From the IMG/VR virus record IMGVR_UViG_3300049098_000031, positions 1 through 54,990 of that record: a stretch of DNA of 54,990 bases; one strand, written 5' to 3'. This stretch comes from a virus. The translations under genes and the position numbers were made by a program. Numbering within the stretch: the stretch's first letter is position 1; each line of letters opens with the position of its first letter. Below, one piece after another: positions 2 to 23,661 of the stretch. The notes under the pieces were generated by a model. The model was not told where the DNA came from and did not search any database. It worked only from the letters and a program-made list of their open reading frames with translations.

Positions 2-1168
2 ATCAACACCATGCTCGGCTCTGCTGGCATGGATGACATCGACACCATCGTCAGGAATCGCGAAAAGACAGAGGCTGCACTCGCCAACCTGACCAACGAG
101 TTCTCGGAGATGAAGCGCAAGATGGCGACCATGCACGTCTCCAAGGGTGGAAGCGTTGCCAAAGTCTCTGCAAGCGGAGAGCTTCCGAGCGGTGGTGCAA
201 CGTGGCGCAATGCCAACGAGGTACTGAAAGAGAAGGGCATCCGTGTGCCTGATTCTCGCAAGCACATGTTCCAGTTCGAGGTTCCGTTCTTCGAGTGGGA
301 TAGCGAGCACCGTGACGTACCGCAGCAGGATGAAGCGTACCGCTGGCGCTGGGACGTACTCGCCAAGCTGATGTGGGGTCTTGCCTTCGACAAAAAGCCG
401 TGGGTCTGGGGTCACACTGGCACTGGCAAGACCACCCTCGTTGAGCAGGTGTGCTCCATCCTGAACTGGCCGTTCGTACGGGTGAACTTCGACTCGGAGA
501 TCACGCGTATGGACTTGATCGGCAAGGACGGGCTGACCACGGATGAGCATGGCAACACGATCTCGTACTTCAAGGACGGCATCCTGCCGCAAGCGATGAG
601 CCAGCCGACGGTCATCTGCAACGACGAGCTGGACTTTGTCCGGCCTGACATTGCATACGTATACCAGCGTGCCTTGGAGGGCAATGGCCTGCTGCTCACA
701 GAGGATGCTGGTCGCCTGATCCGTCCGCATGAATACAACCGCATGGTAGCCACGGCCAACACGCAGGGTCAGGGCGATGAGTTCGGTCTGTATCAGGGCG
801 CAAGGGTGCAATCGCAAGCGTTCCTTGATCGCTTCCAGTGCTGGGTTGAGGTCGGATACCTGAACGCAACGGACGAGAAGAAACTGGTGCAAGCACGTGT
901 GCCTTCGCTGGCCGAGGACATGGTTGATCGGCTGATCAAGTATGTACGTGAGCATCGTGAAGCGTTCAAGCAGGCTGCGATTCTCAAGCCGCTGTCGCCA
1001 CGTGGTGTTATCTCGACTGCCGAGGCGATTGCGTTCTTTACTTCGCTGCATCCCAAGGCCAAGGAAGGTGAGGCCGTACGCATGGCCATCGAGGCCACTG
1101 TGCTTGGCTCGGTGACGCATGCTGATGCTGCCAAGATCAACGAGTTAGTCGATAGAACTTTTAACTAA
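2..1168 (+). CDS. CobS-like MoxR-type AAA+ ATPase, 5' end may lie outside the window
   Basis: The protein has a Walker A GHTGTGKTT at residues 134-142 (counting from the ATG at 11), a Walker B VICNDELDF at 201-209, a sensor-like ATANT at 247-251 and a DRF arginine-finger segment near 273. The order and spacing match the CobS/MoxR group, known from the cobaltochelatase ATPase subunit and from many phages. The frame is open to the window edge and no ribosome-binding site precedes the ATG at 11, so the true start may be upstream. By family knowledge it would form an AAA+ ring that remodels a partner, most likely the VWA protein at 2696-4720. A cobalamin role is unlikely in a phage, since no other cobalamin gene is near. 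Its last codons form one arm of the hairpin at 1138-1175. The ATPase call is firm; the substrate is unknown. Confidence 0.88.
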   Translation: MNTMLGSAGMDDIDTIVRNREKTEAALANLTNEFSEMKRKMATMHVSKGGSVAKVSASGELPSGGATWRNANEVLKEKGIRVPDSRKHMFQFEVPFFEWDSEHRDVPQQDEAYRWRWDVLAKLMWGLAFDKKPWVWGHTGTGKTTLVEQVCSILNWPFVRVNFDSEITRMDLIGKDGLTTDEHGNTISYFKDGILPQAMSQPTVICNDELDFVRPDIAYVYQRALEGNGLLLTEDAGRLIRPHEYNRMVATANTQGQGDEFGLYQGARVQSQAFLDRFQCWVEVGYLNATDEKKLVQARVPSLAEDMVDRLIKYVREHREAFKQAAILKPLSPRGVISTAEAIAFFTSLHPKAKEGEAVRMAIEATVLGSVTHADAAKINELVDRTFN

Positions 1169-1175
1169 CTCGTTG
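1138..1175. repeat. 12-bp perfect inverted repeat of the TAACTCGTTG motif
   Basis: CAACGAGTTAGT (1138-1149) and ACTAACTCGTTG (1164-1175) pair perfectly around a 14-base loop and straddle the ATPase stop codon. There is no T-run after it, so it is a poor intrinsic terminator. The same 13 bases CTAACTCGTTGCA recur on the minus strand in the intergenic region before the capsid gene (43510-43522), again next to an inverted copy. A protein-binding site or control element is inferred. Confidence 0.6.
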
Positions 1176-1198
1176 CATCCGACTTAAACTTCATGCTA

Positions 1199-1219
1199 GG
1201 GTGTCTGCACTAGACACCC
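1199..1219 (+). promoter_or_regulatory. 8-bp hairpin in the leader of the HNH gene
   Basis: GGGTGTCT (1199-1206) and AGACACCC (1212-1219) form a perfect stem with a five-base loop, ending four bases before the GGAG ribosome-binding site (1223-1226) of the HNH gene. Hairpins that limit early translation are known upstream of phage homing endonuclease genes; that role here is an inference. No T-run follows. Confidence 0.45.
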
Positions 1220-1232
1220 GATGGAGATCACC

Positions 1233-1841
1233 ATGAACCCACTTGATCTGGCCGGAAAGACATTCGGTCGCTGGACTGTGCTTGGCTTCGCCGAGCGCAG
1301 GAATCGTGCAACCTACTGGCATTGCCGGTGTGAGTGCGGCAAGCGTCGCAAGGTAAAGGGCGTGACCCTGACAAACGGTACGTCAACAAGCTGCGGATGC
1401 AGCAGACGCAAGCCAATCTCGCACGGCATGTCGAAGACGCCAACTTGGTACTCGTGGCTGGCGATGCGACGCCGCTGTTACGAGCCTAGCCACTCCGGCT
1501 ACAGCCAGTACGGCGGACGTGGCATCAAGGTCTGCGACCGTTGGCGTGACTCGTTCGAGAACTTCCTTACCGACATGGGCTATCGCCCTGATGGCATGAC
1601 GCTGGATCGCATCGATAACGATGGCGATTACACACCAACGAACTGCCGATGGGCTGATGCCAACACGCAAGCGCGCAACAGGAAGTACGTCAAGACAGTC
1701 ACGTGCAACGGTGAGTCGTTGACCAAGGCCGAGTGGGCCAGACGAACCGGGGTCACACAGGCGCTGATCTCTATGCGCATCAACAAACTGGGGTGGGACG
1801 TGTGCAAGGCATGCACCACCCCTCGAAGGAGTAAGCGATGA
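1233..1841 (+). CDS. HNH-type homing-like endonuclease with N-terminal Cys cluster
   Basis: The start is placed at the ATG at 1233 because GGAG lies six bases upstream; an ATG at 1221 has no such site. The 202-residue product has a Cys cluster (CRCECG at 31-36, SCGC at 53-56) that probably binds zinc. A long segment typical of phage HNH proteins follows: YGGRGIKVCDRW at 93-104 and LDRIDNDGDYTPTNCRW at 124-140. The C-terminal stretch (about 153-190, TKAEWARRTGVTQALISMR) resembles a DNA-binding helix-turn-helix. Such genes often behave as mobile free-standing endonucleases. Its position between the ATPase and its likely VWA partner suggests insertion into that operon. It overlaps the next gene by ATGA. 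Confidence 0.82.
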   Translation: MNPLDLAGKTFGRWTVLGFAERRNRATYWHCRCECGKRRKVKGVTLTNGTSTSCGCSRRKPISHGMSKTPTWYSWLAMRRRCYEPSHSGYSQYGGRGIKVCDRWRDSFENFLTDMGYRPDGMTLDRIDNDGDYTPTNCRWADANTQARNRKYVKTVTCNGESLTKAEWARRTGVTQALISMRINKLGWDVCKACTTPRRSKR

Positions 1842-2524
1842 ACATCACTGAAGCAATGAAGAAACAAGAAGACCTGAACGACGAGCTTGCTGATCACGTT
1901 GTGTACAGCGAAGAACTTGGTGCGCATGTACTGCATCACCCGTTCGTTGTGCAGGTTCCGTACACGCCACAGCTCAATGCGCTGTGTAACCAATGGTTTG
2001 CTGGCAAGACCGAAGCGACCGAACGTGCGTTGAGGGAGGGCAAGTTCCATCACTACGTGTTCCTGCACGAACGACCGTACCGACTGTCTGCGTTCATACG
2101 TGTGATCCACGATGACCGCATGGAAGACGACGACTACTGGTCGTTGTTGCGTGACGTCTGGCTCGACGCTGAGTTCCCGTCTCGTAACCGTTCCTCGTGG
2201 CGCACGCTGTTCATGTCCGAAAGGCATGGCATGCGTCAATCAATCATGGATGCCGGTGAGTACCACACATGGCACAACCTGCCTGACAGGATACGTGTCT
2301 ATCGTGGCTGCGACATCGAGAAGGAAACATCGCAGGGCATATCGTGGACGCTTGATCCGACGATAGCGTTGTGGTTTGCCAACCGATTCGGTCGTAGCGG
2401 GCAGGTCATCTCGGGCGAGGTCGGCAGGGAAGCGATCCGTGCGGTACTCAATGGACGTGGCGAGTCGGAAGCGATCATCGTCACGGACTTCGACTGGGAG
2501 GCTGCGGTAAACCATGACGAATGA
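1838..2524 (+). CDS. ADP-ribosyltransferase-like protein
   Basis: The 228-residue product has three blocks spaced like an ADP-ribosyltransferase active site: VYRG with Arg156, ISWT at 168-171, and GESEAII with an E-x-E (209-211). Between them lies a FANRF segment typical of the NAD-binding fold. These match the R-S/T-E triad of arginine-type ARTs. The N-terminal 150 residues are not recognised. If active it would transfer ADP-ribose from NAD+ to a host or phage protein. The ATG overlaps the HNH stop as ATGA, so translation is probably coupled. The fold call rests on short motifs read by eye; a non-catalytic relative is possible. Confidence 0.6.
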   Translation: MNITEAMKKQEDLNDELADHVVYSEELGAHVLHHPFVVQVPYTPQLNALCNQWFAGKTEATERALREGKFHHYVFLHERPYRLSAFIRVIHDDRMEDDDYWSLLRDVWLDAEFPSRNRSSWRTLFMSERHGMRQSIMDAGEYHTWHNLPDRIRVYRGCDIEKETSQGISWTLDPTIALWFANRFGRSGQVISGEVGREAIRAVLNGRGESEAIIVTDFDWEAAVNHDE

Positions 2525-2690
2525 AATGCTCATCAACACGGCGACCGTGAAGCGGTTGCGCAAAGCGTACGATAAGGCGTACGCACAAGGACTCGAACGC
2601 ATGACGTTCGACAAGGTTGAGCTGGACATGGAGTACGCCATGTACCTGCTCGATTGGGCTGAAGACTACATCAAACAACACAAGAGGTAA
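2514..2690 (+). CDS. Small hypothetical protein, 58 aa
   Basis: An ATG at 2514 opens a 58-residue frame ending with TAA at 2690, six bases before the next start. It overlaps the ART-like gene by 11 bases. An alternative ATG at 2526 would give 54 residues. The product is helical and rich in charged and aromatic residues (KRLRKAYDKAYAQG, then YAMYLLDWAEDYIKQHKR at the end). No family is recognised. Its compact fit between two genes and the ribosome-binding AGAGG near its 3' end, which serves the VWA gene, support a real gene. Confidence 0.65.
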   Translation: MTNEMLINTATVKRLRKAYDKAYAQGLERMTFDKVELDMEYAMYLLDWAEDYIKQHKR

Positions 2691-2695
2691 TCAAC

Positions 2696-4720
2696 ATGAA
2701 CAAACGACGTAACATCATCAGCACCGTGCCTGAGCATGGCATGAAGACCGAAGAGTTTGCGATGGCGCAAACATCTGCAAGCCGGGTGTTCGGACGTGAT
2801 CGGGATGCCGCTGTCATCTTCGAGGGCAATCAGGCCATGGTTCGGACGGACGGCACCATCGTCTATCCTGCGCTGGCTGGCGGACACCAGATGTCCAAGG
2901 ACGAGATACTGGTAGCGCGTGGCTTTGCCGACCACGAAACTGGGCACAAGCGCTACACGGATACGGGCGTTATGGAAGAGTTCAACAAGGAGTGCGAGTC
3001 ATCTGACAATGCGTTGCTGCGACAGGTTGCGTTCGCAGTGGATGACATTCGCATCGAGAAACTTGCGATCCGTGACTACTCCGGTGCGCAGACCAACCTC
3101 GAAGCGACCAACGATGCGATGCTTGGTGAGTTCGTTGAGTTCGCCAAGGAACATCCCGAAGAGGCGCGTGATCTTGACGTTGTCATGCCTGTCATGATGA
3201 CAGTCGAGGGTCGTCGGCGTATGGGGTATCGCTCCGAGCATGCCGATGATGCGCTGGCCGTACTGACAGACGAGCAGCGTGAGAAGATCAATGCGTACGT
3301 CGACATTGCCATGGGCGTGACCAGCCCTGATCCAGTTGGCGGCACACGTGAAGTGATCGATGCTGCCAAGCTGATCATCGACGAGAAGGAGAAGCAGGAG
3401 GAGCAGGATGACCAGCCTGAAGATGGAGAGGGGCTTAACCCTGAAGGCGGCGACGAGGGCATCCCTGTTGAAGGCGGCGATGACGAAGGCGGAGGCGGCA
3501 GTGGAGACGACGAGGAACGTGAGCAGTCCGATTCCGAAGGCAAGACCACTGGCGAACACAAGGAGTTTACTGGTGAGCTTGCGTCGCAGGGCAAGCCGCT
3601 CGATGCGGATGACCTGATGAGCAAGGCGATCAACAGCTCGTTCGAGAAGTACATCCAGCCCAACAGCAAGCACTATCGTCCGTACTCCACGCAATACGAC
3701 AGCTACTCCCGTGCCGATGACCTGATGGTTGGGATGATGACGCCGTACATGAAGTCTCGTGTCGAGTCGGGATCGGTGAGGCGTTACGAGAGGATCGTGA
3801 AGGACATGCACGGCAAAATCTCCACCATGGCACGCAAGCTGGAGCGTGCGTTGATGGCCAAGCAGCGTCGTGACTGGCAGACCAACTTGGAGTTCGGCAA
3901 CCTTGATCCTAAGCGTCTGGTGCAAGCTGCGCTTGGCAAGGACAACGTCTTCCGTATGCGTGACGACCGCAAGGAACTTGACACTGCCGTGTCGATGGTG
4001 ATCGACCTGTCTGGAAGCATGCACGGTCGTGTGTTTCTGGCCGAGCAGGTTGCGATAGCGTTGTCGCAGGTACTGGAGAAGGTCGGTGTTGCGTTCGAGG
4101 TTGTTGGCTTCAACAACATCTTCATCGCCTCGTACTCAACGGCTGATAGCAAAGAGTACTGCACTCCCGGACGATACGCTGATGCGGTGTTGCCTATCTC
4201 GTGGATGAAAGACCTGAAGAAGGTCGCCGAAAACCCGAGAACTAGTGGCAAGTTCTCCCGCTTTGAGCCGTTCCAGATGTACGAGTTCAAGTCGTACGAC
4301 CGCAAGCTGATGCAGGAACGGCATGGCATGGGCATGATTGCCAAGTGCGTTGGCGGTCACAACTCTGACGTCGAGGCTGTACGCATGGCGGCGACGCACC
4401 TGCGTCACAGGCCGGAGTCACGCAAGATCATGTTTGTCCTGTCCGATGGACTCCCCGAGGTCACGTGTACGCTGGGCGGTTCTTCTCACCAGCTCCAGCA
4501 CTTGCGCAACGAGATCGAGCGAATGGGTATGCACGGCATCGAGTGCGTTGGTCTTGGCATCCAGTCCGATGCCGTGTCTCGCTTCTATCCACGCTACGTG
4601 ATCGTCAACGATATCAATGATCTGCCGAAGGCATCGTTCGATCAGATGGCCAAGATGCTGGTCAATGACAGGTACAAGGTCGACAACTCAGACCTGATGT
4701 CCTCGACTGGGGCAAGGTGA
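2696..4720 (+). CDS. CobT-like VWA-domain protein with HETGH motif
   Basis: The 674-residue product has an N-terminal domain containing HETGH (80-84) followed by an acidic helical segment (VDDIRIEK), then an acidic glycine-rich linker at roughly 225-300. A C-terminal von Willebrand A domain follows, with the MIDAS sequence DLSGS (437-441) and the later SDG (583-585). This is the arrangement of CobT-type proteins that partner MoxR/CobS AAA+ ATPases. The HExxH-like motif suggests a metal-binding or protease-like domain; whether it is catalytic cannot be said. AGAGG precedes the ATG. With the ATPase at 2-1168 it forms a likely metal-dependent ATPase/adaptor pair. It ends in a GTGA overlap with the next frame. 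Confidence 0.82.
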   Translation: MNKRRNIISTVPEHGMKTEEFAMAQTSASRVFGRDRDAAVIFEGNQAMVRTDGTIVYPALAGGHQMSKDEILVARGFADHETGHKRYTDTGVMEEFNKECESSDNALLRQVAFAVDDIRIEKLAIRDYSGAQTNLEATNDAMLGEFVEFAKEHPEEARDLDVVMPVMMTVEGRRRMGYRSEHADDALAVLTDEQREKINAYVDIAMGVTSPDPVGGTREVIDAAKLIIDEKEKQEEQDDQPEDGEGLNPEGGDEGIPVEGGDDEGGGGSGDDEEREQSDSEGKTTGEHKEFTGELASQGKPLDADDLMSKAINSSFEKYIQPNSKHYRPYSTQYDSYSRADDLMVGMMTPYMKSRVESGSVRRYERIVKDMHGKISTMARKLERALMAKQRRDWQTNLEFGNLDPKRLVQAALGKDNVFRMRDDRKELDTAVSMVIDLSGSMHGRVFLAEQVAIALSQVLEKVGVAFEVVGFNNIFIASYSTADSKEYCTPGRYADAVLPISWMKDLKKVAENPRTSGKFSRFEPFQMYEFKSYDRKLMQERHGMGMIAKCVGGHNSDVEAVRMAATHLRHRPESRKIMFVLSDGLPEVTCTLGGSSHQLQHLRNEIERMGMHGIECVGLGIQSDAVSRFYPRYVIVNDINDLPKASFDQMAKMLVNDRYKVDNSDLMSSTGAR

Positions 4721-5410: not shown

Positions 5411-5790
5411 TGAACAAGGTGATATGCCCACTATGCGGTCACTATATTGAGCCAGCAAAAGAAGCACATGTTCACAGAAAGGTTGGTGGACATCGCTGGG
5501 CAGTACACTCTGATTGCTGGCAGGAGTCAGGTGGTTTTGAAGAACTGAAAACAGCGGTTGCAGATGCCGCATTGCAGGAGAGTGTGGTGATGGAAGAGAA
5601 GAAATTTTGCCCGTTCACAATGACACGGCCAGACGAACCTTGGCCTTGTTGCGAAAATATGTGCATGGCATGGGAGCCAGAAGAGACTTTGATCCGAAAG
5701 GAGTACGACCCGCAGTTGACACAGACTGTTGACCAAACGCTCCATTATGACGGCTACTGCAAGCTGATCGAAAAGCGGGAGGTTGAGTGA
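5410..5790 (+). CDS. Cys/His-rich putative zinc-binding protein, 126 aa
   Basis: The ATG at 5410 is chosen over the GTG at 5407 because GAGGA sits at a normal distance. The first 40 residues carry CPLCGHYI, then several His residues and HSDCW, which looks like a treble-clef or HNH-like zinc site without clear catalytic residues. The second half has CPFTM, CCENMCMAW and a final YCK, a second possible metal site. The base composition is more AT-rich than its neighbours, which may indicate separate acquisition. It overlaps the integrase start as TGATG. Function unknown. Confidence 0.65.
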   Translation: MNKVICPLCGHYIEPAKEAHVHRKVGGHRWAVHSDCWQESGGFEELKTAVADAALQESVVMEEKKFCPFTMTRPDEPWPCCENMCMAWEPEETLIRKEYDPQLTQTVDQTLHYDGYCKLIEKREVE

Positions 5791-6653
5791 TGGACAGGAG
5801 TACGCAACTCAAACTGCTTGGCTCGGTGGAGCGGGTCAAGCATCCTGATTCGCCAACGCTATGCGATGTTTGCACACGGTACATCATTGACCGTGGTGAG
5901 CTTGGCGATACGGATGCGCTGTACATCGAGCGGCTGGAAAACGAGATCGGTGAATGGCCGATTGCATCGCTCGACAGGAAGACGGTCGACGTGTTGATTA
6001 CGCGTCATCGTCTGGACGTACGTGGCAACTCGAAGGCTGCGGTGAGGCGTGAGCTGACCACGTTACAGGCGGTGTTGAACTTCGCCTACGACGTGGGCAT
6101 TGCGGAGCATCCGACCAAGTTGCGCAAGCCGAACAGTGACAAGCCACGTGATGTGTGGCTCGATTCGGATGGCGTCGAGGAGTTCCTGCGCATGTGTGAT
6201 CAGGAGTTCAGGCCGTTTGCGACGGTGTTGTTCTTCACCGGCATGCGCCTGAGCGAAGCGATCAATGCGCGCTGGGATCATGTGCGTGGCAACGTCCTCA
6301 CGGTCGAGTCGAGGAAGGGTGGCGTCCACAAGACGCGCTCGATCCCGTTGGTGCAGCGTGTGCTTGACCTGATCGGCACACAGGGTACGGGTTGGTTGCT
6401 CAAGCGTAGCTGCGGATCGCAGTGGACGAAGCGCATGGTGTACCAGCACTGGAATCCCGTGCGTGACAGGATGGGCATGCCAGCGTTGACGCCGCACTGT
6501 GCACGTCACTCGTTCGCCAGTAACCTGATCATCCGTGGGGCTGACAGTCGCACGGTAGCGGAGTTGCTGGGGCACTCGTCCATGGACATGATGAAGCGGT
6601 ACACGCATCTGAACACCACGCACCTGACGGAGGCAGTGTCCAAGCTGGTGTAG
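5790..6653 (+). CDS. int: Tyrosine recombinase / phage integrase
   Basis: The ATG at 5790 follows GGGAGG and overlaps the previous stop; the product is 287 residues, on the short side for phage integrases. An N-terminal core-binding domain is followed by the catalytic domain with Arg153 (TGMRLSE), Lys176 (SRKGG), the His236-x-x-Arg239 box (HCARHSF), His262 (LGHSS) and the nucleophile Tyr271 (RYTHL). All catalytic residues are present, so it should be active in site-specific recombination at an attachment site. It lies last in the plus-strand cluster, just before a terminator. No clear att site can be pointed out from this window alone. A role in dimer resolution instead of integration cannot be excluded. 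Confidence 0.92.
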   Translation: MDRSTQLKLLGSVERVKHPDSPTLCDVCTRYIIDRGELGDTDALYIERLENEIGEWPIASLDRKTVDVLITRHRLDVRGNSKAAVRRELTTLQAVLNFAYDVGIAEHPTKLRKPNSDKPRDVWLDSDGVEEFLRMCDQEFRPFATVLFFTGMRLSEAINARWDHVRGNVLTVESRKGGVHKTRSIPLVQRVLDLIGTQGTGWLLKRSCGSQWTKRMVYQHWNPVRDRMGMPALTPHCARHSFASNLIIRGADSRTVAELLGHSSMDMMKRYTHLNTTHLTEAVSKLV

Positions 6654-10853: not shown

Positions 10854-11255
10854 ATGAATAGACCAATAGATGAAGACGAACTCGACCAACTCGCGCAGGA
10901 ATACCTGCATTGTATCGAAGCCAAGAAGGGCATCGACCAGCTACTCAGGGAAGTGAAGCAAAAGATTTCCACCTACAAAGCAACACCCGCCCCCGGCGCA
11001 GAAGCGCATTTCTCTGGCAAACGATACGATGTCGTTGTCAAGAAAGCGGCGCGTTATAAATGGGATGAGGATATGGTGGAAGCAGCGGCCAAGAATGATG
11101 ATGCAATCGATGCCATCGTCAAGCACAAGGTAACGGTCGACACCAAGAAACTCGACTCCCTGCCAACCAAGTCGCTCACGCACCTGCTCGGTTATGCCGA
11201 CATCACCGACGGAATGATCACCGTCAAGATCACAGAGAAAGAGGAAAACGAATGA
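10854..11255 (+). CDS. Hypothetical protein of the recombination operon, 133 aa
   Basis: This is the first gene after the plus-strand promoter. The N-terminal 40 residues are a charged helix (LDQLAQEYLHCIEAKKGIDQ), followed by an alpha/beta region ending in an acidic tail. Small proteins of this kind commonly precede Sak4-like ATPases in phages, but no function is established to my knowledge. The stop overlaps the ATPase start as ATGA, which suggests coupled expression and perhaps a shared complex. Confidence 0.72.
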   Translation: MNRPIDEDELDQLAQEYLHCIEAKKGIDQLLREVKQKISTYKATPAPGAEAHFSGKRYDVVVKKAARYKWDEDMVEAAAKNDDAIDAIVKHKVTVDTKKLDSLPTKSLTHLLGYADITDGMITVKITEKEENE

Positions 11256-12049
11256 CATTCACACCAATGAAGACCGATGATGATGCCATCATCGATGCGT
11301 CGAAGACGCTCGTGTACGCACTGCACGGGTTCGGCAAGACAACCCAGTGCCGGTACTATCAGGAGGCATTTGGCAAGGGGTTCATCCTGTCTGGAGAGGG
11401 AGGGCTGCGTTCCATCAGCGACGTCGGCATCGATTACCTGCCGTTCTCGTCATGGGATGGCAAGCACGATCCAGAAGCAGGCGTGTACTCGTTCCGTGGC
11501 ATCTGCAAGATGATCCAGTCTCCTGATTTCAAGAAGGCTGGCTACAAGTGGATCGCCATCGACTCTTTGACTGAGGCCAGCGACTTGCTGTTCAAGGAAC
11601 TGGAGCAGAAGTTCAAGGACGACAAGAACGGTTTCAAGATGTGGGGCGAGTTCGCACGCCAGATGATCGGCTCACTCAAGTGGGTACGCGATCTCGGCTA
11701 CCACGTACTCGTAACGGCGCTGGCCAAGGACGAGGAAGACGACAACGGTCGCACGACCTTCTGGCCGCACGTACACGGCAAGGCAGCGGCCAAACAAATT
11801 CCTGCACTGTTCGATCACGTGTTCGCAGGCGTACGGGAAACCATCCATGAAGACGATGGAAGTATCCGTGTCGTACGCAAGCTATACAGTGACGAGGTGT
11901 ACGGATACCACGGCAAGATACGCGATCCGTTGCGGCGTATCCCGCCCGTAATCCACGAGGCCAACATTGCGGCTGTACTGGAAGCCATGAACTACGACAG
12001 CGACGATTTTGATAAGTGGCTTGCAAGCCACGAAGGAGAATACGCATGA
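11252..12049 (+). CDS. Sak4-like RecA-type ATPase (single-strand annealing/recombination)
   Basis: The 265-residue protein carries a P-loop HGFGKTT (25-31) immediately after an N-terminal strand, then EGGLRSI and a Walker B-like KWIAIDSLTE segment. This short RecA-fold plan fits Sak4-type phage ATPases, which work with an ssDNA-binding protein in homologous recombination. The following gene is such a protein and overlaps as ATGA, and a nuclease lies two genes on. GAGG precedes the ATG. The family call depends on motif order and context. Confidence 0.78.
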   Translation: MTFTPMKTDDDAIIDASKTLVYALHGFGKTTQCRYYQEAFGKGFILSGEGGLRSISDVGIDYLPFSSWDGKHDPEAGVYSFRGICKMIQSPDFKKAGYKWIAIDSLTEASDLLFKELEQKFKDDKNGFKMWGEFARQMIGSLKWVRDLGYHVLVTALAKDEEDDNGRTTFWPHVHGKAAAKQIPALFDHVFAGVRETIHEDDGSIRVVRKLYSDEVYGYHGKIRDPLRRIPPVIHEANIAAVLEAMNYDSDDFDKWLASHEGEYA

Positions 12050-12576
12050 GTGATTTTGATTTTTCCCAACTCGACCTGAGCGAATATGAAGTCGACAGCG
12101 GTGAGGAGCGCCTGCGTGCAGGTAGATACATCTGCAAGGTGACTGAGGCCAAGGTCGAACCGATGAAGAGCAAGAACGGGTACACGCTTGTTCTGCGCCT
12201 TGAAGACAAGGTGACTGGCCACGGCAGCATACCGATGTTCATTACCGTCAAGCACAGCAAGAGCGCCAAGGCGCAACAAATCGGGCTTGCGCAGGTAAAG
12301 ACACTGGCCACGCATGGCGGCTTGCCCAACCCTGACAAGGTCGGAGACGTGAAGAACCTCGTCGGCCTTGAGGTAGGTGTGAAGGTATCGCCTGAGCCTT
12401 GGACTGACGACAACGGCGAAGAACGCACGGGTAGTGCCGTCGACAAGTGGCACCCGTTCTTTGATCCAGCCAAGGGCGCAACCGGCCCCGACCCCGTGGA
12501 AACGAAGGGATCGGACTCGGTAAAAACCCCGCCGCCTCCGAAGGCAGACCCATTCGACGACGACATTCCTTTCTGA
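12046..12576 (+). CDS. DUF669-like single-stranded DNA-binding protein
   Basis: The start ATG 12046 has GGAG upstream and overlaps the ATPase stop. The 176-residue product has a beta-rich N-terminal domain (LRAGRYICKVTEAKVEPMK), a central region with IGLAQVKTLATHGGLPNPD, and a disordered proline-rich linker ending in the acidic tip DPFDDDIPF. That tip is the classic C-terminal tail by which SSB proteins dock partners. DUF669-type proteins next to Sak4-like ATPases act as phage SSBs. It likely coats ssDNA during replication and recombination. Confidence 0.78.
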   Translation: MSDFDFSQLDLSEYEVDSGEERLRAGRYICKVTEAKVEPMKSKNGYTLVLRLEDKVTGHGSIPMFITVKHSKSAKAQQIGLAQVKTLATHGGLPNPDKVGDVKNLVGLEVGVKVSPEPWTDDNGEERTGSAVDKWHPFFDPAKGATGPDPVETKGSDSVKTPPPPKADPFDDDIPF

Positions 12577-12630
12577 TTTCGTGTCACTCGTTGCCAAGGA
12601 CGGCTTTTTTCACCACACAGAGAACAACCA

Positions 12631-12684
12631 ATGACTGAGATTACCTACAACAGACAATTTATCGAGGAGCAACAAGATGGCTGA
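12631..12684 (+). CDS. Possible 17-aa leader peptide
   Basis: An ATG at 12631 opens a 17-codon frame (MTEITYNRQFIEEQQDG) that ends with TGA overlapping the start of the next gene at 12677. It contains the GAGGAG that serves that gene. It could be a translational leader or simply chance; no independent support exists. Confidence 0.25.
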   Translation: MTEITYNRQFIEEQQDG

Positions 12685-13090
12685 CTCACTGGATAATCTG
12701 CACGAATCAGAGCGACGCAAGCGCGAAGCAATGAACATGATGGACGAAAGGGTTCGCGTGAGCTTCGACCCGAACAACCTGAACCAACACGAACCCGGTG
12801 CCAAGCTGGATGGCGGCAAGCCACGTATGAGCCTGATCATGAACGGCTTCGCCAGTGCATTGTACGAGGTCGCACAGGTAGGTACGTACGGTGCCGACAA
12901 GTACACCGACAACGGCTGGGTGGAAGTCCTTGATGGCGTCAGCCGTTACACCGATGCGATGTACCGGCACCTGCTGTTTGAATCATCCGAAACACACGAT
13001 CCCGAAAGCAACCTCATGCACGCCGCACATGCTGCATGGAACGCATTGGCAAGGCTGGAGCTGATGCTGCGGGAAGGTCGGCACTTGTGA
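12677..13090 (+). CDS. dATP/dGTP diphosphohydrolase-like (DUF5664-type) protein
   Basis: The 137-residue protein has the pattern GAKLDGGKPR near residue 41, then a helix, GADKYTDNGW, YTDAMYRHLL, an acidic ESNLMHAAHAAW block, and a final leucine-rich helix. I recognise this as the phage family known as dATP/dGTP diphosphohydrolase N-terminal domain, related to MazG-type all-alpha NTP pyrophosphatases. It would hydrolyse deoxynucleoside triphosphates to monophosphates and pyrophosphate and so change the dNTP pool. GAGGAG precedes the start. Activity depends on the family assignment, which is by pattern. Confidence 0.7.
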   Translation: MADSLDNLHESERRKREAMNMMDERVRVSFDPNNLNQHEPGAKLDGGKPRMSLIMNGFASALYEVAQVGTYGADKYTDNGWVEVLDGVSRYTDAMYRHLLFESSETHDPESNLMHAAHAAWNALARLELMLREGRHL

Positions 13091-13968
13091 TCGAAGAGAT
13101 CGCTGATCTCGTCGAGAAGAACGAACCGGAGTCTCCCTCCGGTCGCATTACTCCAGAACACATCGAGCGCGAATACATAGGCGCATCCAGCATCGGGCAT
13201 CCATGTGAACGCATGATCGCCCTGCGCCTACGCGGCTTTCCAACCGATCCGATCCGCCCGTCCTTGAAGCGCATCTTCGAGGCTGGCCACCTGTTCGAGC
13301 GGTTGGTTGTCGATCATCTGGAGGAGTGCGTATCGTACTTCGACGAGTACGTTGTTACCGACACAGGCGCTGGCATCGAAGAGCAGCACACGTACTACTA
13401 CTACGGTGGCGCATGCCGCGCACACAGTGATGGCGTCCTGCTACACAAGAAGAGCGACGAGAAGACGCTGATTGAGATCAAGTCTGCCAACGACACGTCG
13501 TTCGGCTCGTTCGTACGCCTCGGCCTGAAATACTCGCACCAGTCCTACTACGACCAAATGCAGTTGATGATGGGCCTTGGCGAAATGAAGCATGGCCTGA
13601 TGATCATGATCAACAAGAACAACAGCCAGATGCACACGGAGGTTATCGAGTTCGACGAAGTCATCTTCGGCTACCTGACTGCACGCGTCGAGTACGTGGC
13701 ATCAGGCAAGGACGAGAAGTACGGGAAGGACGCCAACAACCCGGTGTGTAATATGTGTAGTTACACACACGCCTGCCACGACCCAATCGAGATCGACCGT
13801 AGCGAACGTACGTGCAGGCACTGCGCCTACTCGATCATCACTCCCGGCGACTATGCCTACTGCAACAACGACGACGTGCTTGAGGTAAGCGCGATACTGG
13901 AAAGAGACGAAGCACACAGAAACGCACGCACGTGCCCATACTTCACTGACTACAGGGGGAAGAAATGA
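13087..13968 (+). CDS. Cas4/AddB-like PD-(D/E)XK exonuclease with Fe-S-type Cys cluster
   Basis: The start is a GTG at 13087 overlapping the preceding stop (GTGA). The 293-residue protein has an N-terminal Cys40 (GHPCER), His68 in EAGHLFE, Asp115 (HSDG), the Glu130-x-Lys132 pair (IEIKS) and a QMQ motif (157-159). Cys221, Cys224 and Cys230 then complete a four-cysteine set with Cys40. This is the Cas4/AddB plan, in which four cysteines hold a 4Fe-4S cluster around a RecB-type nuclease. A further Cys group (243, 246, 259) is extra. With Sak4-like ATPase and SSB it makes a recombination cassette that would resect DNA ends. Confidence 0.78.
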   Translation: MIEEIADLVEKNEPESPSGRITPEHIEREYIGASSIGHPCERMIALRLRGFPTDPIRPSLKRIFEAGHLFERLVVDHLEECVSYFDEYVVTDTGAGIEEQHTYYYYGGACRAHSDGVLLHKKSDEKTLIEIKSANDTSFGSFVRLGLKYSHQSYYDQMQLMMGLGEMKHGLMIMINKNNSQMHTEVIEFDEVIFGYLTARVEYVASGKDEKYGKDANNPVCNMCSYTHACHDPIEIDRSERTCRHCAYSIITPGDYAYCNNDDVLEVSAILERDEAHRNARTCPYFTDYRGKK

Positions 13969-14216
13969 GCGACCTTATCATGGAACACACAGCAAGCTGG
14001 GTTACGAAGAAGATACGCGACCGCGAACGCAGTAACCTGACAGACCTGCCGACAGCCGTCTTCATCACAGACGACATGAAAGAAGAACACGATATTCTGA
14101 TCCGTGGGTTATCACGCGCCCCCGGCAAGGGTTACGATTTGCTCGGCGTATACGAGAATCCGACACGTGAACTCATACTCGAAGACCTGCAAGAATTTTA
14201 CGGAGCACCCGCATGA
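13965..14216 (+). CDS. Small hypothetical protein, 83 aa
   Basis: The ATG overlaps the nuclease stop (ATGA), and its own stop overlaps the next start the same way. The product is a mixed alpha/beta protein with AVFITDDMKEEHDILIRGL and a C-terminal acidic helix. No family is recognised. Tight coupling to the nuclease and oxygenase genes suggests a role in the same process. Confidence 0.65.
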   Translation: MSDLIMEHTASWVTKKIRDRERSNLTDLPTAVFITDDMKEEHDILIRGLSRAPGKGYDLLGVYENPTRELILEDLQEFYGAPA

Positions 14217-14848
14217 CCCAACTCATCGATCAGTATTACCACGTACCAAATGTCTTCACCGAAGCAGAGATCGGCGAGATCATCGAGCGCGGCAAGGCCA
14301 TGGCTCCAAGTCGTGCAAAGGTACTCAAGGGAGGCGTCTCTATACCTGACGTCTTTGCACGCCGCTGCAAGCAATCATGGATACAGATGCGCTACGACTC
14401 TCGCTGGATATTCAACAAGCTGTCGGATGCCGTGAACCATGCGAACGACACTTCATTCAAATACAACCTGAGCTGCATGGAGCCGCTGCATTACTTGGAG
14501 TACGGTTTTCTTGGCGGGTACGGCAAACACGTCGACAACGGCGAAGATCGTGTACGCAACCGGTTGCTTACTGCCATCGTTCCACTTACCAGCTTCAGCG
14601 AATACGTTGGCGGAGGACTGGTGATTCACGGTGATGAGTACAGCATGCCGGTCGAATTCATTTCCAACCTTGGTGACGTCATCGTGATTGACTCTGGGCT
14701 ACCACATGAAGCCAAGCCAGTATGGTGGGGCAATCGCAAGGCGCTAGTGGGGTGGTTCCGTGGGCCAACGCCGCCAGACCTGAAGCACGAAACGCTTCTC
14801 TATGACGTACCGAAACGACCGAAACGAGGCGTCAGCACATGGACGTAA
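14213..14848 (+). CDS. 2-oxoglutarate/Fe(II)-dependent dioxygenase
   Basis: The 211-residue protein shows the double-stranded beta-helix signature of prolyl-4-hydroxylase-type oxygenases: GKHVDN with the iron ligands His106 and Asp108, GGGLVIH and GDVIVIDS strands, the distal iron ligand His165 (LPHEAKPV), and Arg175/Lys176 (NRKALVGW) for 2-oxoglutarate. All three iron ligands are present. The substrate could be a phage or host protein side chain or a nucleic acid base; the sequence does not decide. It lies in the early recombination operon and not among virion genes, which leans toward DNA or a host factor. Confidence 0.82.
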   Translation: MTQLIDQYYHVPNVFTEAEIGEIIERGKAMAPSRAKVLKGGVSIPDVFARRCKQSWIQMRYDSRWIFNKLSDAVNHANDTSFKYNLSCMEPLHYLEYGFLGGYGKHVDNGEDRVRNRLLTAIVPLTSFSEYVGGGLVIHGDEYSMPVEFISNLGDVIVIDSGLPHEAKPVWWGNRKALVGWFRGPTPPDLKHETLLYDVPKRPKRGVSTWT

Positions 14849-15054
14849 ACTTGATCTTGACGCTTGGCCACCGCAGGGAACATCCGACGATTACCAAGGG
14901 CGCTAGATTTACGATTGCCGAAGGCGAGCCAGTAAACGAGGAATCGCTTGCCAAGGTACATAAGCAGATCGAACACGCCGTACGCCTGATGATGGCGGAG
15001 ATACAGGAGGAGGTTGCCCCAGAGGGCACGCCTCCCCCGATCACGTTCGATTAA
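14839..15054 (+). CDS. Small hypothetical protein, 71 aa
   Basis: It overlaps the oxygenase gene by ten bases and is the last gene of the plus-strand operon. Residues 1-35 look beta-rich, and a helix follows (KVHKQIEHAVRLMMAEIQEEV), then a proline-rich tail. No family is recognised. Its TAA stop shares the TTAA at 15051-15054 with the stop of the converging giant gene. Confidence 0.6.
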   Translation: MDVNLILTLGHRREHPTITKGARFTIAEGEPVNEESLAKVHKQIEHAVRLMMAEIQEEVAPEGTPPPITFD

Positions 15055-18000
15055 TCGAAGCCGCTATCGAATCCACCCTTGAATCCATCGGTGAAGGACT
15101 TACCCCATCCTCCGCCTTTGGATTTCTTCTTGGGTGCCTCTCCCGCCATCAGGTCGACCATCGACTCTCGTGCCGCCTTGACGCCTCCAACAAGCGGTAC
15201 GCGTCCGACCGCCTCACGAGCCGCCGCACGTTCCTTGGAGTTGCTATCGCTGGTTCCCCAGCCAAGCGTATCCAGCCCTGCCTCCTTCGCCCCGCCCAGT
15301 ATCTTCATGGCGGAGAACCCGGTGCCGACTGTCGGGCCAAGGATAGTCCCTGCTACCCTTGCTTCGCCGTACGCGCCGTTGTCTGCCTGAGCGACGACGT
15401 CGTGGATGACCTCGGCGAGGAAGCCGAAGCCACCTGCTGCACCAAGTCCCTCGAAGTACCAACCAAGGTAGCCGTCCCAGTCGCCATGCACTTCTTCGTC
15501 GTAGCCGATGGCTTTCATGAAGCTGCGCTCACGAAACGCTGCTGACCTGTCGTCTTCGCCACCACGCATCTGCACCACGTCCTTGACTCCCAGTGCGGCA
15601 GCGCCCATAGCTGGAGCCATGGTGAGCAGGTAGCCCGGTCGCTTCATGTAGCGCGGATCACCAGTACGGAAGAACTTCTTCACGTCCTTGATCATCACGT
15701 CCTTGACCAGCCTGCCCATCATGAGAGGGAACGACTTGAGTTGCCAGAACAGTGCGCCAATCGGCGTTTGATATACGATTGGAATGTCGTTCGGGTTCGG
15801 CGAGAAGATTGTGTCGTTGGCGAACTTGATCATGCCCTTCGATACTGCTACGTCTTCAGGGTTGAGTTCCTTGCCGGGGTTTTCGAGGTAGTCTTCCAGC
15901 CCGTACTTCTTCAGCATACGGTGTGCGTACTTGTATGCAGCCGGTTGGTTGGCCAAGGGTGCGCCATCAACCTTCGCCATCAACGCTTTACGTCGCTGCG
16001 TCTCAAACATACTCAGCGCAATCGAGCCGGAAATCCCACGCCACATGTCAGTCCACGGCGTCAGCATGGTCGCGTTGAAGAACGCGTTCTGCGCCTTGCC
16101 GATTTTTCCAGCAGCGTCTGCTGCGTACAGACCAATCATGCGACTGTGAAGCTGGTTCTCGATAGCGACACCAGTCTGCTTGATCATGTCCCTGAACTCA
16201 CCATCAGACGCGTACTTGGTGATCCCTCTGATCCAGTCCTGCATGCTGCCAGACCGAATGAGCGGCAGGGTTGTGTCAGGAATAGAGGTCAGCGTGGTAA
16301 ACGTCAACAGCGAGATGTTGTTGAACGCACGCATCGCACGGCTGGAGTGGATTGCCTTGTCGGATGACAGCTTGTTGACCTGCTTGCCTTGGATCGCGCG
16401 CATGGTTCCCTCGGCGTGCTTGAACTCGTCGTGGTGCATACGGGTGGGGTTGCCACCTTCGTCCAGCTCGAAGTCGCGCATACCGTTGACGATAGCATCG
16501 ACACGACGCTCGTAAGTCTTCGAGGTTCTATCCGGCGGCATCATCTCCATGAGCATCTGCCGTGCAGAAGCGGTGCCACCGTCGCCACGGACAGCGGCCA
16601 GTACCTTCTTGGCTGCCTCTTTCGCCTCGAACTCATTCGAGAATGGCATGTCGACGCGCAGTGAAATCTCGCCAGTCTCGTACGGTGAGTCGTCTCCAGC
16701 GCCAATGATCTGCCCCTTGATCTTCTTGGTAAAGACGCGGGGGCTACTCAGCAGGCGGGCAACGCCGTCCAGACCTTCCTGTCCAACCGTCATGTAATCA
16801 GCGTACGCGTGCATGTTAGTGCCGACACGCTTGGTCTGATGCAGGCGCTTGGTTGCGCCGTCCAGATACTTAACCATGATGACATCGAGGTTGTTCTGGA
16901 GATACGGTTCAAGCACGTCGTACATGCCCGGATGCTGATCGAGTCGGATGAGACGCTGGAAGTCGAGGTTGTCTGCGACCCCAACTGCGTGCGTAACTGG
17001 AGGTGGCACGTACAGGCCATCGTCGCCAACAATCTTGGCAGCCACATGCTCGGCCACCTCACGAGCAGATGCACGCGTACGATCCGGCTTCTCTGCCATG
17101 TAGTAACTTGTCAGCTTTTCGATGAAGTCATCGTGGTTGCCCTTGATTGCTTCAGAGTTCCAGACCTGCGGTACGTAGTCCTTGATGTTTCCGACCATCG
17201 CGCCTTCATTACTCAGTTCCTTGTGAACCTGATCGAACGTATCCCTGATTACGTTGTAGACCTGAAGTTCTTCGTTGCTCAACTGCTTGTAGTGACGTGA
17301 CATGCGACCACGACGCAGCGCTTGCATGATGCGGGTATGCGATTCTGGTTGCTTCTCCATGTCAGCCAGCGGATTCGAGCGTCCCATCCAGCGCTTCATG
17401 GCGTTCGGCGCATCCGGCAGGTTCATCAGCAAGCGGTTGATCGGCATGTAGCGTGAAGCAAACTCATGCTGCGTGGAGGGAGAGAAGTCTTCCACGTAGT
17501 CAGCCAGCCAGTTCATCCCCATCTTGCGCATGCGTGCGCTGTTCGCACCAAGCGTACGGTCGAGGATAGATGCGGCACGCGCATCTTCAAGCTCCCTCTC
17601 GCTCAGTGCGCGGCCCCGGAATATGGAACGAGCAGCGTTGACGAACCCTTTCGGTGTGCCGCTCTCCTCGAGGCTTTGCAGCAGTGCTGGTACGTCGTTC
17701 TCCAGCGACTCGCCGTTGATCATGCGCTTCGCAACGCTGGCGTTGACCGGCTCTTGCAACGGCTCGCTGTAGTAGAGGCGATTGTCAGTCTCGTCGAAGA
17801 ACTTTGCATCCTGATGCTTGACGCTGTACGCAGGCGAACGCGGCTTGCCGTCCTCCCCCATCGTCTCGATCAAGACCATCGTGCGGTGTGCCTTCTTGTA
17901 GCCGTCGACGGTGTTGTAGTGGATCGTATCGATAGAGTCGTAGCCTTGTTCACCAAGATACTTGGTCAGCATGTTACGGGCAGTCGTCGGCTCGATGCCT

Positions 18001-21000
18001 GCGTCCTCTATTGCTAACGACATGTGCTTGTACAGCATGTCGCCACGCAGGCCGGAGCCGCCAGATTCTTCGCCACTGAGCATCAACTTCATTGTGCCCA
18101 TGCTGTAATTGATTTTCGACTGGTCAGCGCCATTGTCCTTCATGACGTTGTAGACGTAGCGGAAGATGTTGCGGGCAATCGCATCATTCTCAAATGTGTA
18201 GTATTTGTTTGGGCGGGCATCGAAGGTATTCATCGCCCTGACGTACACGGGAATGACGCCGGGGTCGTACGGGAATCCCTTGTCGATCATGTCGGCAAGG
18301 ATGCCTTCTTCGTACTCTTGCAGCCCCTCAATGGAACGCTGAAGCGAAGCGATCTCGCTATCGAATTCACCAGCCATGCTCTCCGGGAAGTAGTCATCTC
18401 CCATCGATGCGGCGTAGAAGTCGTTGCTACCATCGCGCAGTGACTCAAGATCGCGCAGCTTGATTTGCGCTTCAGAAATCGACTGCGTGGTCATGGCCAT
18501 GTCTCCCGCCATCATCTCCATCTCCACGTAGAAGTCTGGATCGATGTTCTCCTTGCCACCAAGCGCCTCAGTCCACGCACGCATGTAGCCGCCGTACGTT
18601 GCCCTGCGGCCATACTTGGCATCGACAGTAAACGGGTCGACTGAAACGTAGATGCCAGCCCCGTAGTTGCCTGACTTGGATGCATCGAAGACGGCATCGT
18701 CTGCACGCGACCAAGTGATGTTGGGAGACGCATGGAAGAAAGGCGTCGGTTCGTCTTCGCCTGTGAACATGCGAATCTTTTCTTTCATGGTCGGCAGCGA
18801 AGATTCCCACGTACTCTGGAAGCGCCGCACGGCATGGCTCGGTAGCACAGTCGGAGGCTCAATACGTGATACCGACTTCTTCGGATCGACGAACATGTCG
18901 CCGTAGAGTGTCAGCCTGCGGAATGTCTGGCGGATGTCCTTGCGTCCGATCATGCCGTTCAGCAGGTATGCTGCGCCTTCAATGATGCGGTCGAGGATGC
19001 GGCTCAGTGTGCTACGCAGCTCGAGGTCTTCGATGCTGCCGTCAACACGGGCCTTGAATACGTCGCCCTTGGCTACGCGCTCGGCCAGATACTGCGACCA
19101 GTTTTCGACGTACCATTCCTCGGCCTGACGCTCCAGCTTCATGCTCTCCGGCATGTCTCCGTAGCTGCGCTTCGCCATGGTTTTCTTGATCGGGTCGTCT
19201 GCGTCGATGAACGCCTGCCTGATCATCGCCCGCTCTGTATCCGAGATCAGGTTGGTACGCATGAGAACGTGTCCAATCTCGTGCATCAGATCGAACGGAC
19301 TGCTTTCGCCCTTGTTCAGGCCAACCGACAGTCGACGCAGATCGGAACGCAGCATCTTGAACTCATCGCTGGTGAAGTCAGCCATGACGCCAGTTGCGTT
19401 CGGAGACATCTTGGTGCTGCGGGACAGCCTGTAGATGTCGTTCATCGACAACAGGTTGGCTTCGTCAGTTGCGCTACGCGACGTCTTGTTCATCAGGTTG
19501 AACATCCGGTACGCCAAGGTACGCGAAGTATCCTGCACCTCCGGGTTCCGGTGCGTGATGTATGTCAGCGCCTCACGGATCGTGAAGCGAGCATCATTTG
19601 GAATACCCTCTGTGATACCGGACGCTGTGTCTTTCAGCTCGGTTTGGACAGCAATCCGTACGCCTTGTTCTTGCGCAAGGATCGGGCCGATCTTCTCGCC
19701 GCCAGCTTCGCCACGCTTGATGCGAGCGTTATGGTTACGGCGCATGACCTCCCGAATGATGACGGTCGCTTCTTTTCGCTTGCCGCTTTCAAATGCTTCC
19801 GACAGCATCTCCTTGAGCTGCGGCGAACGCGCCTGAAAAACCTGCTTCTTGAATTCCTTCGACGTCTTCGGCACCGTCTCTTCAGGGGTGCCGGTCTTCA
19901 TCTTGTGAACGATCTCAGCCTCGATGGCCTCGACTTCCTTGGTGCCACGATGCTTCTCGTGCAGCTTCAGGAGGCTCTTCATCGAGCGTGTACGCAGGTC
20001 TGGGATTTCGGCACCACTGGACTTTAGCGCCTCCTTACGATTACCAGCCGCCCACTCCTGCACATCTTTCTCTGCCTTGATCTGCTTGCGCTTGCGCTTT
20101 GCTTTCGCCTTGTTGCGGAACTTGCGAGCGATAGCGTTATCAGGCTTGAGCTTTTGCGCACGGCGGCGCATCTCGTCAGGAATTGACAGGATGTCGAGAT
20201 CGTAAACAGCCTCGCCTTCGAGATCACGCAGTCCCTTGGTGTCCATCTCCAGAACATCTCTGACCATATCGTCGAGATGGCCAGTCGTACGCAGATCGTC
20301 AGCGAAGAAATCGGCGAGGTCGTCAGCGATTTCCTCAGTGCGTTCGAGGTTCATGATGGTCATCTCCTGATCACCATCTACTTCCTTCCATGCGTAATCG
20401 ATTCCTACCGTCTCGCCATCGCCATCGATGATCTCTTCGCGAGCGCGTATGTAGTCAGCCTCTCCTTCACCCTTGATGATCTTGCCGATGTCGTTGGCAA
20501 ACTTCTTGATCTGGTTCTTGTTCTTGCGGCTACCAATCGCACGAAAGTTTGCGATTGAGTGCAGCGCACCAACAAGTTCTTTGGCCCGCTCTACGTACGT
20601 GACCGGGTCTGACGCCATGTCGGCCTGCTCCAGCGCCCGGTGCAGGTCTTCAACCAGCATGTAGTTGTTGATGACGTACGGAGACGCGGGTGAGCGCAAC
20701 GTCGGAATCTCTGCTGGCTTCGACGCCTTGATCTTGGCTGCGATCTGCTTGTCAGGAATGATCTTGGCGAACAGGACTTCGAGGTCTGGATCGATGCGCG
20801 TACGGCTTGCGAAGCGGTCGAAGATCGCCTTCACGTAGCGGGTGACACGCTGCCACAACTTCGGATTTTCGAGGCCAACGTCGCCCTTCTGCGTCAGCCA
20901 CGCAACGAACTGGTTGGCAAAGAATTCTTGCGGAGAATCAAATTCGTTTGTGCTTGGCTTGACCATGCCGCGACCCTGCGTGATGCCGACCTCCTTCATA

Positions 21001-23651: not shown

Positions 23652-23661
23652 CACGTTGCTC

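What the first reader, a model, noticed from the sequence alone, without database searches (positions are those of the whole stretch)
2..4720. CobS-like ATPase and CobT-like VWA module in a phage, interrupted by HNH, ART-like and a tiny gene
Motifs show a MoxR/CobS-type AAA+ ATPase and, three genes later, a VWA protein with MIDAS DLSGS. Such pairs are known for cobaltochelatase and for AAA/VWA chaperones, but no cobalamin gene is here. The inserted HNH gene suggests homing into the operon. What the pair acts on in a phage is open.
Basis: partly seen in the sequence, partly recalled or inferred. Interest (0 to 1): 0.6.

Follow-up and report, generated by a model that had tools for sequence, protein, structure and literature searches.

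The report
Phage CobS/CobT-like motor with protease-like site
This phage carries a two-gene protein machine that databases label as vitamin-B12 synthesis, but the second protein keeps a zinc-protease-like site that the true B12 enzyme has lost, so in viruses the pair more likely remodels or cuts proteins during infection than makes vitamin B12.

Summary
A CobS-like AAA+ ATPase (open at the left contig edge, so its N-terminus is missing) and a CobT-like VWA protein flank an HNH gene, an ADP-ribosyltransferase-fold gene and a 58-aa ORF. Both proteins are related to CobS and CobT but score far below the equivalog cut-offs. CobS groups with viral homologues outside the cellular clade. CobN is absent from all 27 viral records searched.
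It is present in 45/45 aligned viral proteins and absent from 30/30 cellular CobT, whose domain is homologous. It was lost in two Pseudomonas/Stenotrophomonas lineages. The pair is adjacent in 57/57 loci where context allows, often beside replication genes.
Best reading: an ATP-driven MoxR/VWA remodelling machine with a zincin-like head, not a cobaltochelatase. HNH and ART are local passengers. This bears on two conflicting published readings; proteolysis and substrate are untested.

The parts
2..1168 (+). CobS-like AAA+ ATPase, 5'-truncated by the contig end (first ATG at 11); Walker A GHTGTGKTT at 410-436, Walker B NDELD, sensor N, Arg-finger DRF
1221..1841 (+). Free-standing HNH endonuclease (phrog_374/3377), insert between cobS and cobT not seen in relatives
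1838..2524 (+). phrog_4776 protein with ADP-ribosyltransferase fold; triad R156 / S169-W-T / E209-x-E211; starts inside the HNH stop codon (ATGA overlap)
2514..2690 (+). 58-aa ORF resembling the C-terminus of a DUF7694 protein found at the same place in L023
2696..4720 (+). CobT-like protein: N-terminal zincin-like domain, acidic linker, C-terminal VWA domain
2933..2947 (+). HExxH motif (HETGH, residues 80-84) of the CobT-like protein
3044..3046 (+). Asp117, invariant in the aligned viral proteins and lost in cellular CobT: candidate third metal ligand
3983..4663 (+). VWA domain with MIDAS DLSGS at residues 437-441 and SDG at 583-585 (boundaries approximate)
5787..6653 (+). Tyrosine integrase downstream on the same strand (context; recurs in 32 of 58 loci compared)

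Best explanation
cobS and cobT encode one machine of the MoxR-AAA+/VWA type. The CobS-like subunit should form an ATP-driven ring; the CobT-like VWA domain should couple to it through its MIDAS and hold a protein substrate; the N-terminal domain of CobT carries an HExxH + Asp site and should bind zinc and cleave the substrate that the ring pulls or unfolds. It is not a cobaltochelatase. Shown here: homology, constant pairing, absence of CobN in the viral records, conservation of the HExxH/Asp site in viruses and its absence in cellular CobT. Inferred: zinc binding, proteolysis, a protein substrate, and early action (host takeover or genome replication rather than virion assembly). HNH and ART are inserted passengers in this phage. 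My sub-estimates: not a cobaltochelatase 0.8; active metalloprotease 0.6; acts on proteins at the replicating genome 0.35.
For: H80, E81, H84 and D117 are present in 45/45 non-redundant viral CobT-like proteins and in 0/30 cellular CobT above the TIGR01651 cut-off (single columns can coincide, the site never does), while G130, the MIDAS and SDG are kept in both; loci fetched through CobS alone, not through a CobT pattern, show the same. The two N-terminal domains are homologous over 215 columns (hhalign 96.7%, E 4e-10). The signature is also in haloarchaeal HVTV-1, Brevibacterium Cantare, Gordonia GMA7, Pelagibacter HTVC008M, Klebsiella, Rhizobium, SSU5 and ICP2. The AlphaFold2 model of the domain is confident (pLDDT 91.9, pTM 0.88); 13 of the 50 VIA-align rows are HExxH metalloproteases (ZMPSTE24 rank 1, 3c37, selecase, abylysin, M1 aminopeptidases, MATCAP). 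Pair adjacent in 57/57 loci. CobN absent in 27/27 viral records. Cellular CobS is a clade apart. Replication genes flank the pair in ICP2, T5S1, Rhizobium, SSU5, Klebsiella, Pseudomonas, Stenotrophomonas, T4-like cyanophages and a pelagiphage.
Against: Foldseek finds no significant PDB match (best E 0.86) and VIA-align Z is at most 5.5, below the level that shows a shared fold by itself. HExxH is lost in Pseudomonas nickieviruses and Stenotrophomonas ANB28, so proteolysis cannot be essential to the machine everywhere; three relatives have HEAGGH. In the window's own lineage the close neighbours are an integrase and terminase, with primase-helicase 3.5 kb away on the other strand, not a replication operon. 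No activity has been measured.
Confidence: 0.6

Rival explanations
1. Viral cobaltochelatase: CobST joins the host CobN and raises cobalamin supply, for example for B12-dependent ribonucleotide reductase.
For: Sequence relation to CobS/CobT; proposed for tailed viruses by PMC8651126; some carriers encode a ribonucleotide reductase (9 of 17 records, class not determined).
Against: No CobN in 27 viral records. Carriers infect E. coli K-12 (record H22); E. coli is among the control genomes and shows no CobN. The window has no ribonucleotide reductase large subunit. Scores are far below equivalog cut-offs (186 vs 559 and 135 vs 759 bits). The viral protein keeps an HExxH/Asp site that real CobT lacks.
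Confidence: 0.12
2. MoxR-VWA chaperone plus protease for virion assembly, as proposed for group 2.2 jumbo phages.
For: PMC7824862 reports the same architecture (MoxR + VWA fused to an N-terminal metallopeptidase) in jumbo phages and proposes virion assembly, citing a MoxR-VWA system in Acidianus two-tailed virus.
Against: In the window the pair is on + while head and tail genes lie on - at 15-55 kb; in many phages it sits among replication, not structural, genes.
Confidence: 0.2
3. Pure MoxR-VWA remodelling chaperone; HExxH binds a structural or regulatory metal and does not cleave.
For: Natural loss of the site in nickieviruses and ANB28, and absence in cellular CobT, with AAA+ and VWA kept; weak structural match to proteases.
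Against: The catalytic-type Glu81 is as invariant as the two His in the aligned viral set; a purely structural site would not need it.
Confidence: 0.25
4. HNH, ART and the pair form one counter-defence or takeover cassette.
For: HNH, ART and the 58-aa ORF overlap at their ends as in an operon; phage ARTs such as T4 Alt/ModA modify host proteins (own knowledge).
Against: 0 of 80 ART loci have cobS, cobT or a like HNH within 6 kb; the closest relative L023 has other genes in the gap; no PADLOC match beyond weak IetA.
Confidence: 0.05

Closest known systems
MoxR AAA+ / VWA-metallopeptidase pair of group 2.2 jumbo phages (Iyer et al. 2021, PMC7824862)
   Same: AAA+ partner, VWA protein, N-terminal metallopeptidase domain, adjacent genes
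   Different: Described in jumbo phages and assigned to virion assembly; here a 55-kb integrase-bearing phage, pair outside the structural block. ASV44728/9 themselves were not compared here
Viral cobST cluster (Liu et al. 2021, PMC8651126; T4-like cyanophage cobS and 'peptidase')
   Same: Same gene pair, same families (phrog_249; VWA partner)
   Different: That paper reads it as cobaltochelatase and calls the peptidase annotation a mistake; the HExxH/Asp conservation found here supports the peptidase annotation
Aerobic cobaltochelatase CobNST
   Same: CobS/CobT homology over AAA+, N-terminal and VWA domains
   Different: No CobN; HExxH and Asp present; below equivalog cut-offs; separate CobS clade
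RavA-ViaA, CbbQ-CbbO, NorQ-NorD MoxR/VWA remodelers
   Same: Division of labour: AAA+ ring plus VWA/MIDAS adaptor (own knowledge)
   Different: No zincin-like head in these pairs as far as I know; not compared here by sequence

Membership tests
Aerobic cobaltochelatase (CobNST) | CobN catalytic subunit encoded with, or available to, CobST | tested here: inconclusive
   PF02514 absent in G000 and 26 other viral records; the window's host is unknown, so a host CobN cannot be excluded for this phage
Aerobic cobaltochelatase (CobNST) | Equivalog-level score to TIGR01650 / TIGR01651 | tested here: not met
   186 vs 558.55 and 135 vs 759.05 bits (the CobS frame is truncated only N-terminal to the matched region)
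Aerobic cobaltochelatase (CobNST) | CobS within the cellular CobS clade | tested here: not met
   30 cellular CobS form their own clade, support 0.92, without any viral member
MoxR-type AAA+ / VWA pair | AAA+ ATPase with intact Walker A/B, sensor and Arg finger | tested here: met
   Pfam AAA_5 E 1e-12; motifs aligned
MoxR-type AAA+ / VWA pair | Neighbouring VWA gene with MIDAS DxSxS | tested here: met
MoxR-type AAA+ / VWA pair | Physical AAA+/VWA complex and ATP-driven remodelling | not testable with these tools
   needs protein work
Zincin metallopeptidase | HExxH plus a third acidic ligand, conserved | tested here: met
   H80, E81, H84 and D117 invariant in 45/45 (three with HEAGGH) and in 32/32 of A4; that D117 is the ligand is inferred
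Zincin metallopeptidase | Zincin fold | tested here: inconclusive
   Foldseek not significant; VIA-align rows rich in zincins but Z at most 5.5
Zincin metallopeptidase | Zinc binding and proteolysis | not testable with these tools
   needs protein work
ADP-ribosyltransferase (1838-2524) | R-S-E triad with ExE and ART fold | tested here: met
   R/SWT/ExE pattern in 79/80 relatives; nearly all of the 50 VIA-align rows are ART-fold proteins, Z up to 7.3

The most novel reading that the evidence does not exclude
The viral 'cobST' reported across environmental viromes as a vitamin-B12 auxiliary metabolic gene is a conserved ATP-driven metalloprotease of tailed viruses of bacteria and archaea acting on host or replication proteins, and the motor of cellular cobaltochelatase is a relative of it whose protease site has decayed (root not tested).
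Probability: 0.3. Interest if true: 0.8.

Novelty: new member of a known kind. Interest (0 to 1): 0.55.

Why it matters
cobS is listed among globally conserved viral auxiliary metabolic genes and was found in 75% of Baltic water stations (PMC9301287); such finds are used to suggest that viruses boost B12 synthesis. Two published readings of the same kind of gene pair conflict: cobaltochelatase with a 'mistaken' peptidase annotation (PMC8651126) versus MoxR-VWA-metallopeptidase in jumbo phages (PMC7824862). The residue comparison here favours the second and extends it to smaller integrase-bearing phages, cyanophages, phage-plasmids and archaeal viruses. It makes the question testable with one point mutation (E81Q).

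Tried and rejected
Single-protein scans of IMG/VR with CobT and ART found nothing usable; alignments were needed. Foldseek of the CobT head against PDB: no significant hit. Search for a known peptidase family in Pfam/PHROGs: only CobT/CobT_C and unnamed, CobT or weak 'peptidase' phrogs. Association of the ART with cobST: rejected, 0/80. Defence-system reading: no PADLOC match of weight. Staphylococcus and Listeria AAA+ hits: the neighbours checked have no HExxH and no DxSGS. Two literature searches on transcription timing and CobN gave nothing decisive. E. coli K-12 could not be searched by handle; the control genome was used instead.

Full report
What is there. The left end of the window holds, all on +, a CobS-like AAA+ ATPase (2/11-1168), an HNH endonuclease (1221-1841), a phrog_4776 protein (1838-2524), a 58-aa ORF (2514-2690) and a CobT-like VWA protein (2696-4720). 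The CobS frame runs off the contig; its homologues in Roseobacter phage CRP-810 and Cobavirinae phage T5S1 are 617 and 531 aa, so the window's copy is truncated. The record is a virus contig of 54,990 bases without end repeats. Downstream lie an integrase, a RusA-like resolvase, a primase-helicase, a Sak4-like protein and a Cas4-type exonuclease; head, tail, portal and terminase genes are on -.

Are they CobS and CobT? By homology yes, by membership no. The NCBIfam equivalog models are hit at 186 of a required 559 bits and 135 of 759 bits. In a tree, 30 cellular CobS above the cut-off form a clade (support 0.92) that excludes the window and every other viral CobS. CobN is absent from the window and from 26 other viral records. 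One bacterial genome (G001) holds both a true CobT (801 bits) and a viral-type copy (122 bits).

The missed feature. Aligning the viral CobT-like proteins showed that H80, E81, H84, D117 and E121 are invariant across seven very different phages. Extending this to 45 non-redundant viral proteins and 30 cellular CobT gave a clean split: H/E/H/D in 45/45 viral proteins; in cellular proteins the same columns read mostly A/S, F/I/Y/L, R/K and Q/T, while E121 (or D), G130, the MIDAS and SDG are shared. The cellular and viral domains are homologous (hhalign probability 96.7%, E 4e-10, 215 columns), so this is a difference at homologous positions. Bias check: the CobT patterns used for one scan included 'DH', but the loci fetched through CobS alone show the same motif. 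Three relatives read HEAGGH. The signature recurs in a haloarchaeal virus, Brevibacterium and Gordonia phages, a pelagiphage and a Klebsiella phage. It is lost, His and Asp together, in Pseudomonas nickieviruses and, His only, in Stenotrophomonas ANB28. The joint loss fits a metal site, and shows that the machine can be kept without it.

Structure. The AlphaFold2 model of residues 1-234 is confident (pLDDT 91.9, pTM 0.88): two short strands, a long helix with HExxH, and a later helix with D117 and E121. Foldseek finds no significant PDB match. The VIA-align second look lists 13 HExxH metalloproteases among 50 rows, with ZMPSTE24 first, but Z is at most 5.5, which alone proves nothing. For puromycin-sensitive aminopeptidase (8sw0) the end of the aligned range would place H80/H84 on H352/H356, the HExxH of that enzyme by my own knowledge; a residue-level alignment was not shown. 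Against viral models there are 11 hits with E up to 1e-3; the named ones are mostly phage CobT/VWA proteins.

Pairing and place. Of 62 loci with either gene, 57 have both, adjacent; the other five are at contig ends. The median gap is about a dozen bases; the window's 1,527 bases is the longest. In ICP2, T5S1, Rhizobium, SSU5, Klebsiella, Pseudomonas, Stenotrophomonas, two T4-like cyanophages and a pelagiphage the pair sits among DNA ligase, polymerase, primase, helicase, clamp or recombination genes. This was read from annotation, not tested statistically. In the window's own lineage the recurrent neighbours are integrase and terminase.

Passengers. The phrog_4776 protein is an ADP-ribosyltransferase by fold (pLDDT 92.5; nearly all VIA-align rows are ART-fold proteins, Z up to 7.3; Foldseek alone was not significant) and by motif (R, SWT, ExE in 79/80 relatives). 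None of 80 ART loci has cobS, cobT or such an HNH within 6 kb. The closest relative of the window's CobT, L023 (58% identity over the N-terminal part), has other small genes in the gap, one of which shares its C-terminus with the window's 58-aa ORF. So the gap is a place where genes accumulate; HNH-driven insertion is plausible, not shown.

How it likely works (inferred). A CobS ring hydrolyses ATP; the VWA MIDAS of CobT grips the ring and a substrate; the N-terminal head binds zinc and cuts what the ring exposes. Jumbo-phage authors proposed virion assembly for the same architecture; others proposed cobalamin synthesis by hijack of host CobN. The second is disfavoured by the residue split, by missing CobN, and by carriers that infect E. 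coli, whose control genome shows no CobN. Between assembly and early action I lean to early action from gene position, weakly.

Verdict. The value lies in the residue evidence that viral 'cobST' is a protease-type MoxR/VWA machine.

Noticed in passing
G001-G058 (class of the Poseidonocella genome): Of 33 genomes with a CobT above the TIGR01651 cut-off only 18 show CobN; 15 (and control Caulobacter vibrioides) have cobST without CobN, so cellular CobST may also have another role. Some assemblies are incomplete.
   Followed up: partly
L103, L148, L147: HExxH naturally lost in Pseudomonas nickieviruses (with the Asp) and Stenotrophomonas ANB28, while the AAA+/VWA pair is kept: a natural comparison set for chaperone versus protease function.
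   Followed up: partly
window 1838-2524; L150-L229: phrog_4776 ART family is widespread (187 IMG/VR stretches, mycobacteriophages, Agrobacterium pAt plasmids) and unannotated; its N-terminal half (about residues 1-107) has no tested fold match.
   Followed up: partly
window 15051-23654 (-): 2,867-aa protein with no clear family (phrog_35479 E 2e-5, DUF1501 E 0.003).
   Followed up: no
L059, L060, L067: CobT-like proteins with HEAGGH or HESGGH (one extra residue) instead of HExxH.
   Followed up: no
L139 25607-32250: Haloarchaeal virus HVTV-1 carries the pair about 2 kb from a SprT-like protease gene and an HNH gene.
   Followed up: no
window 11252-14848: Sak4-like annealing ATPase, Cas4-domain exonuclease and a 2OG-Fe(II) oxygenase in a row on +.
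   Followed up: no
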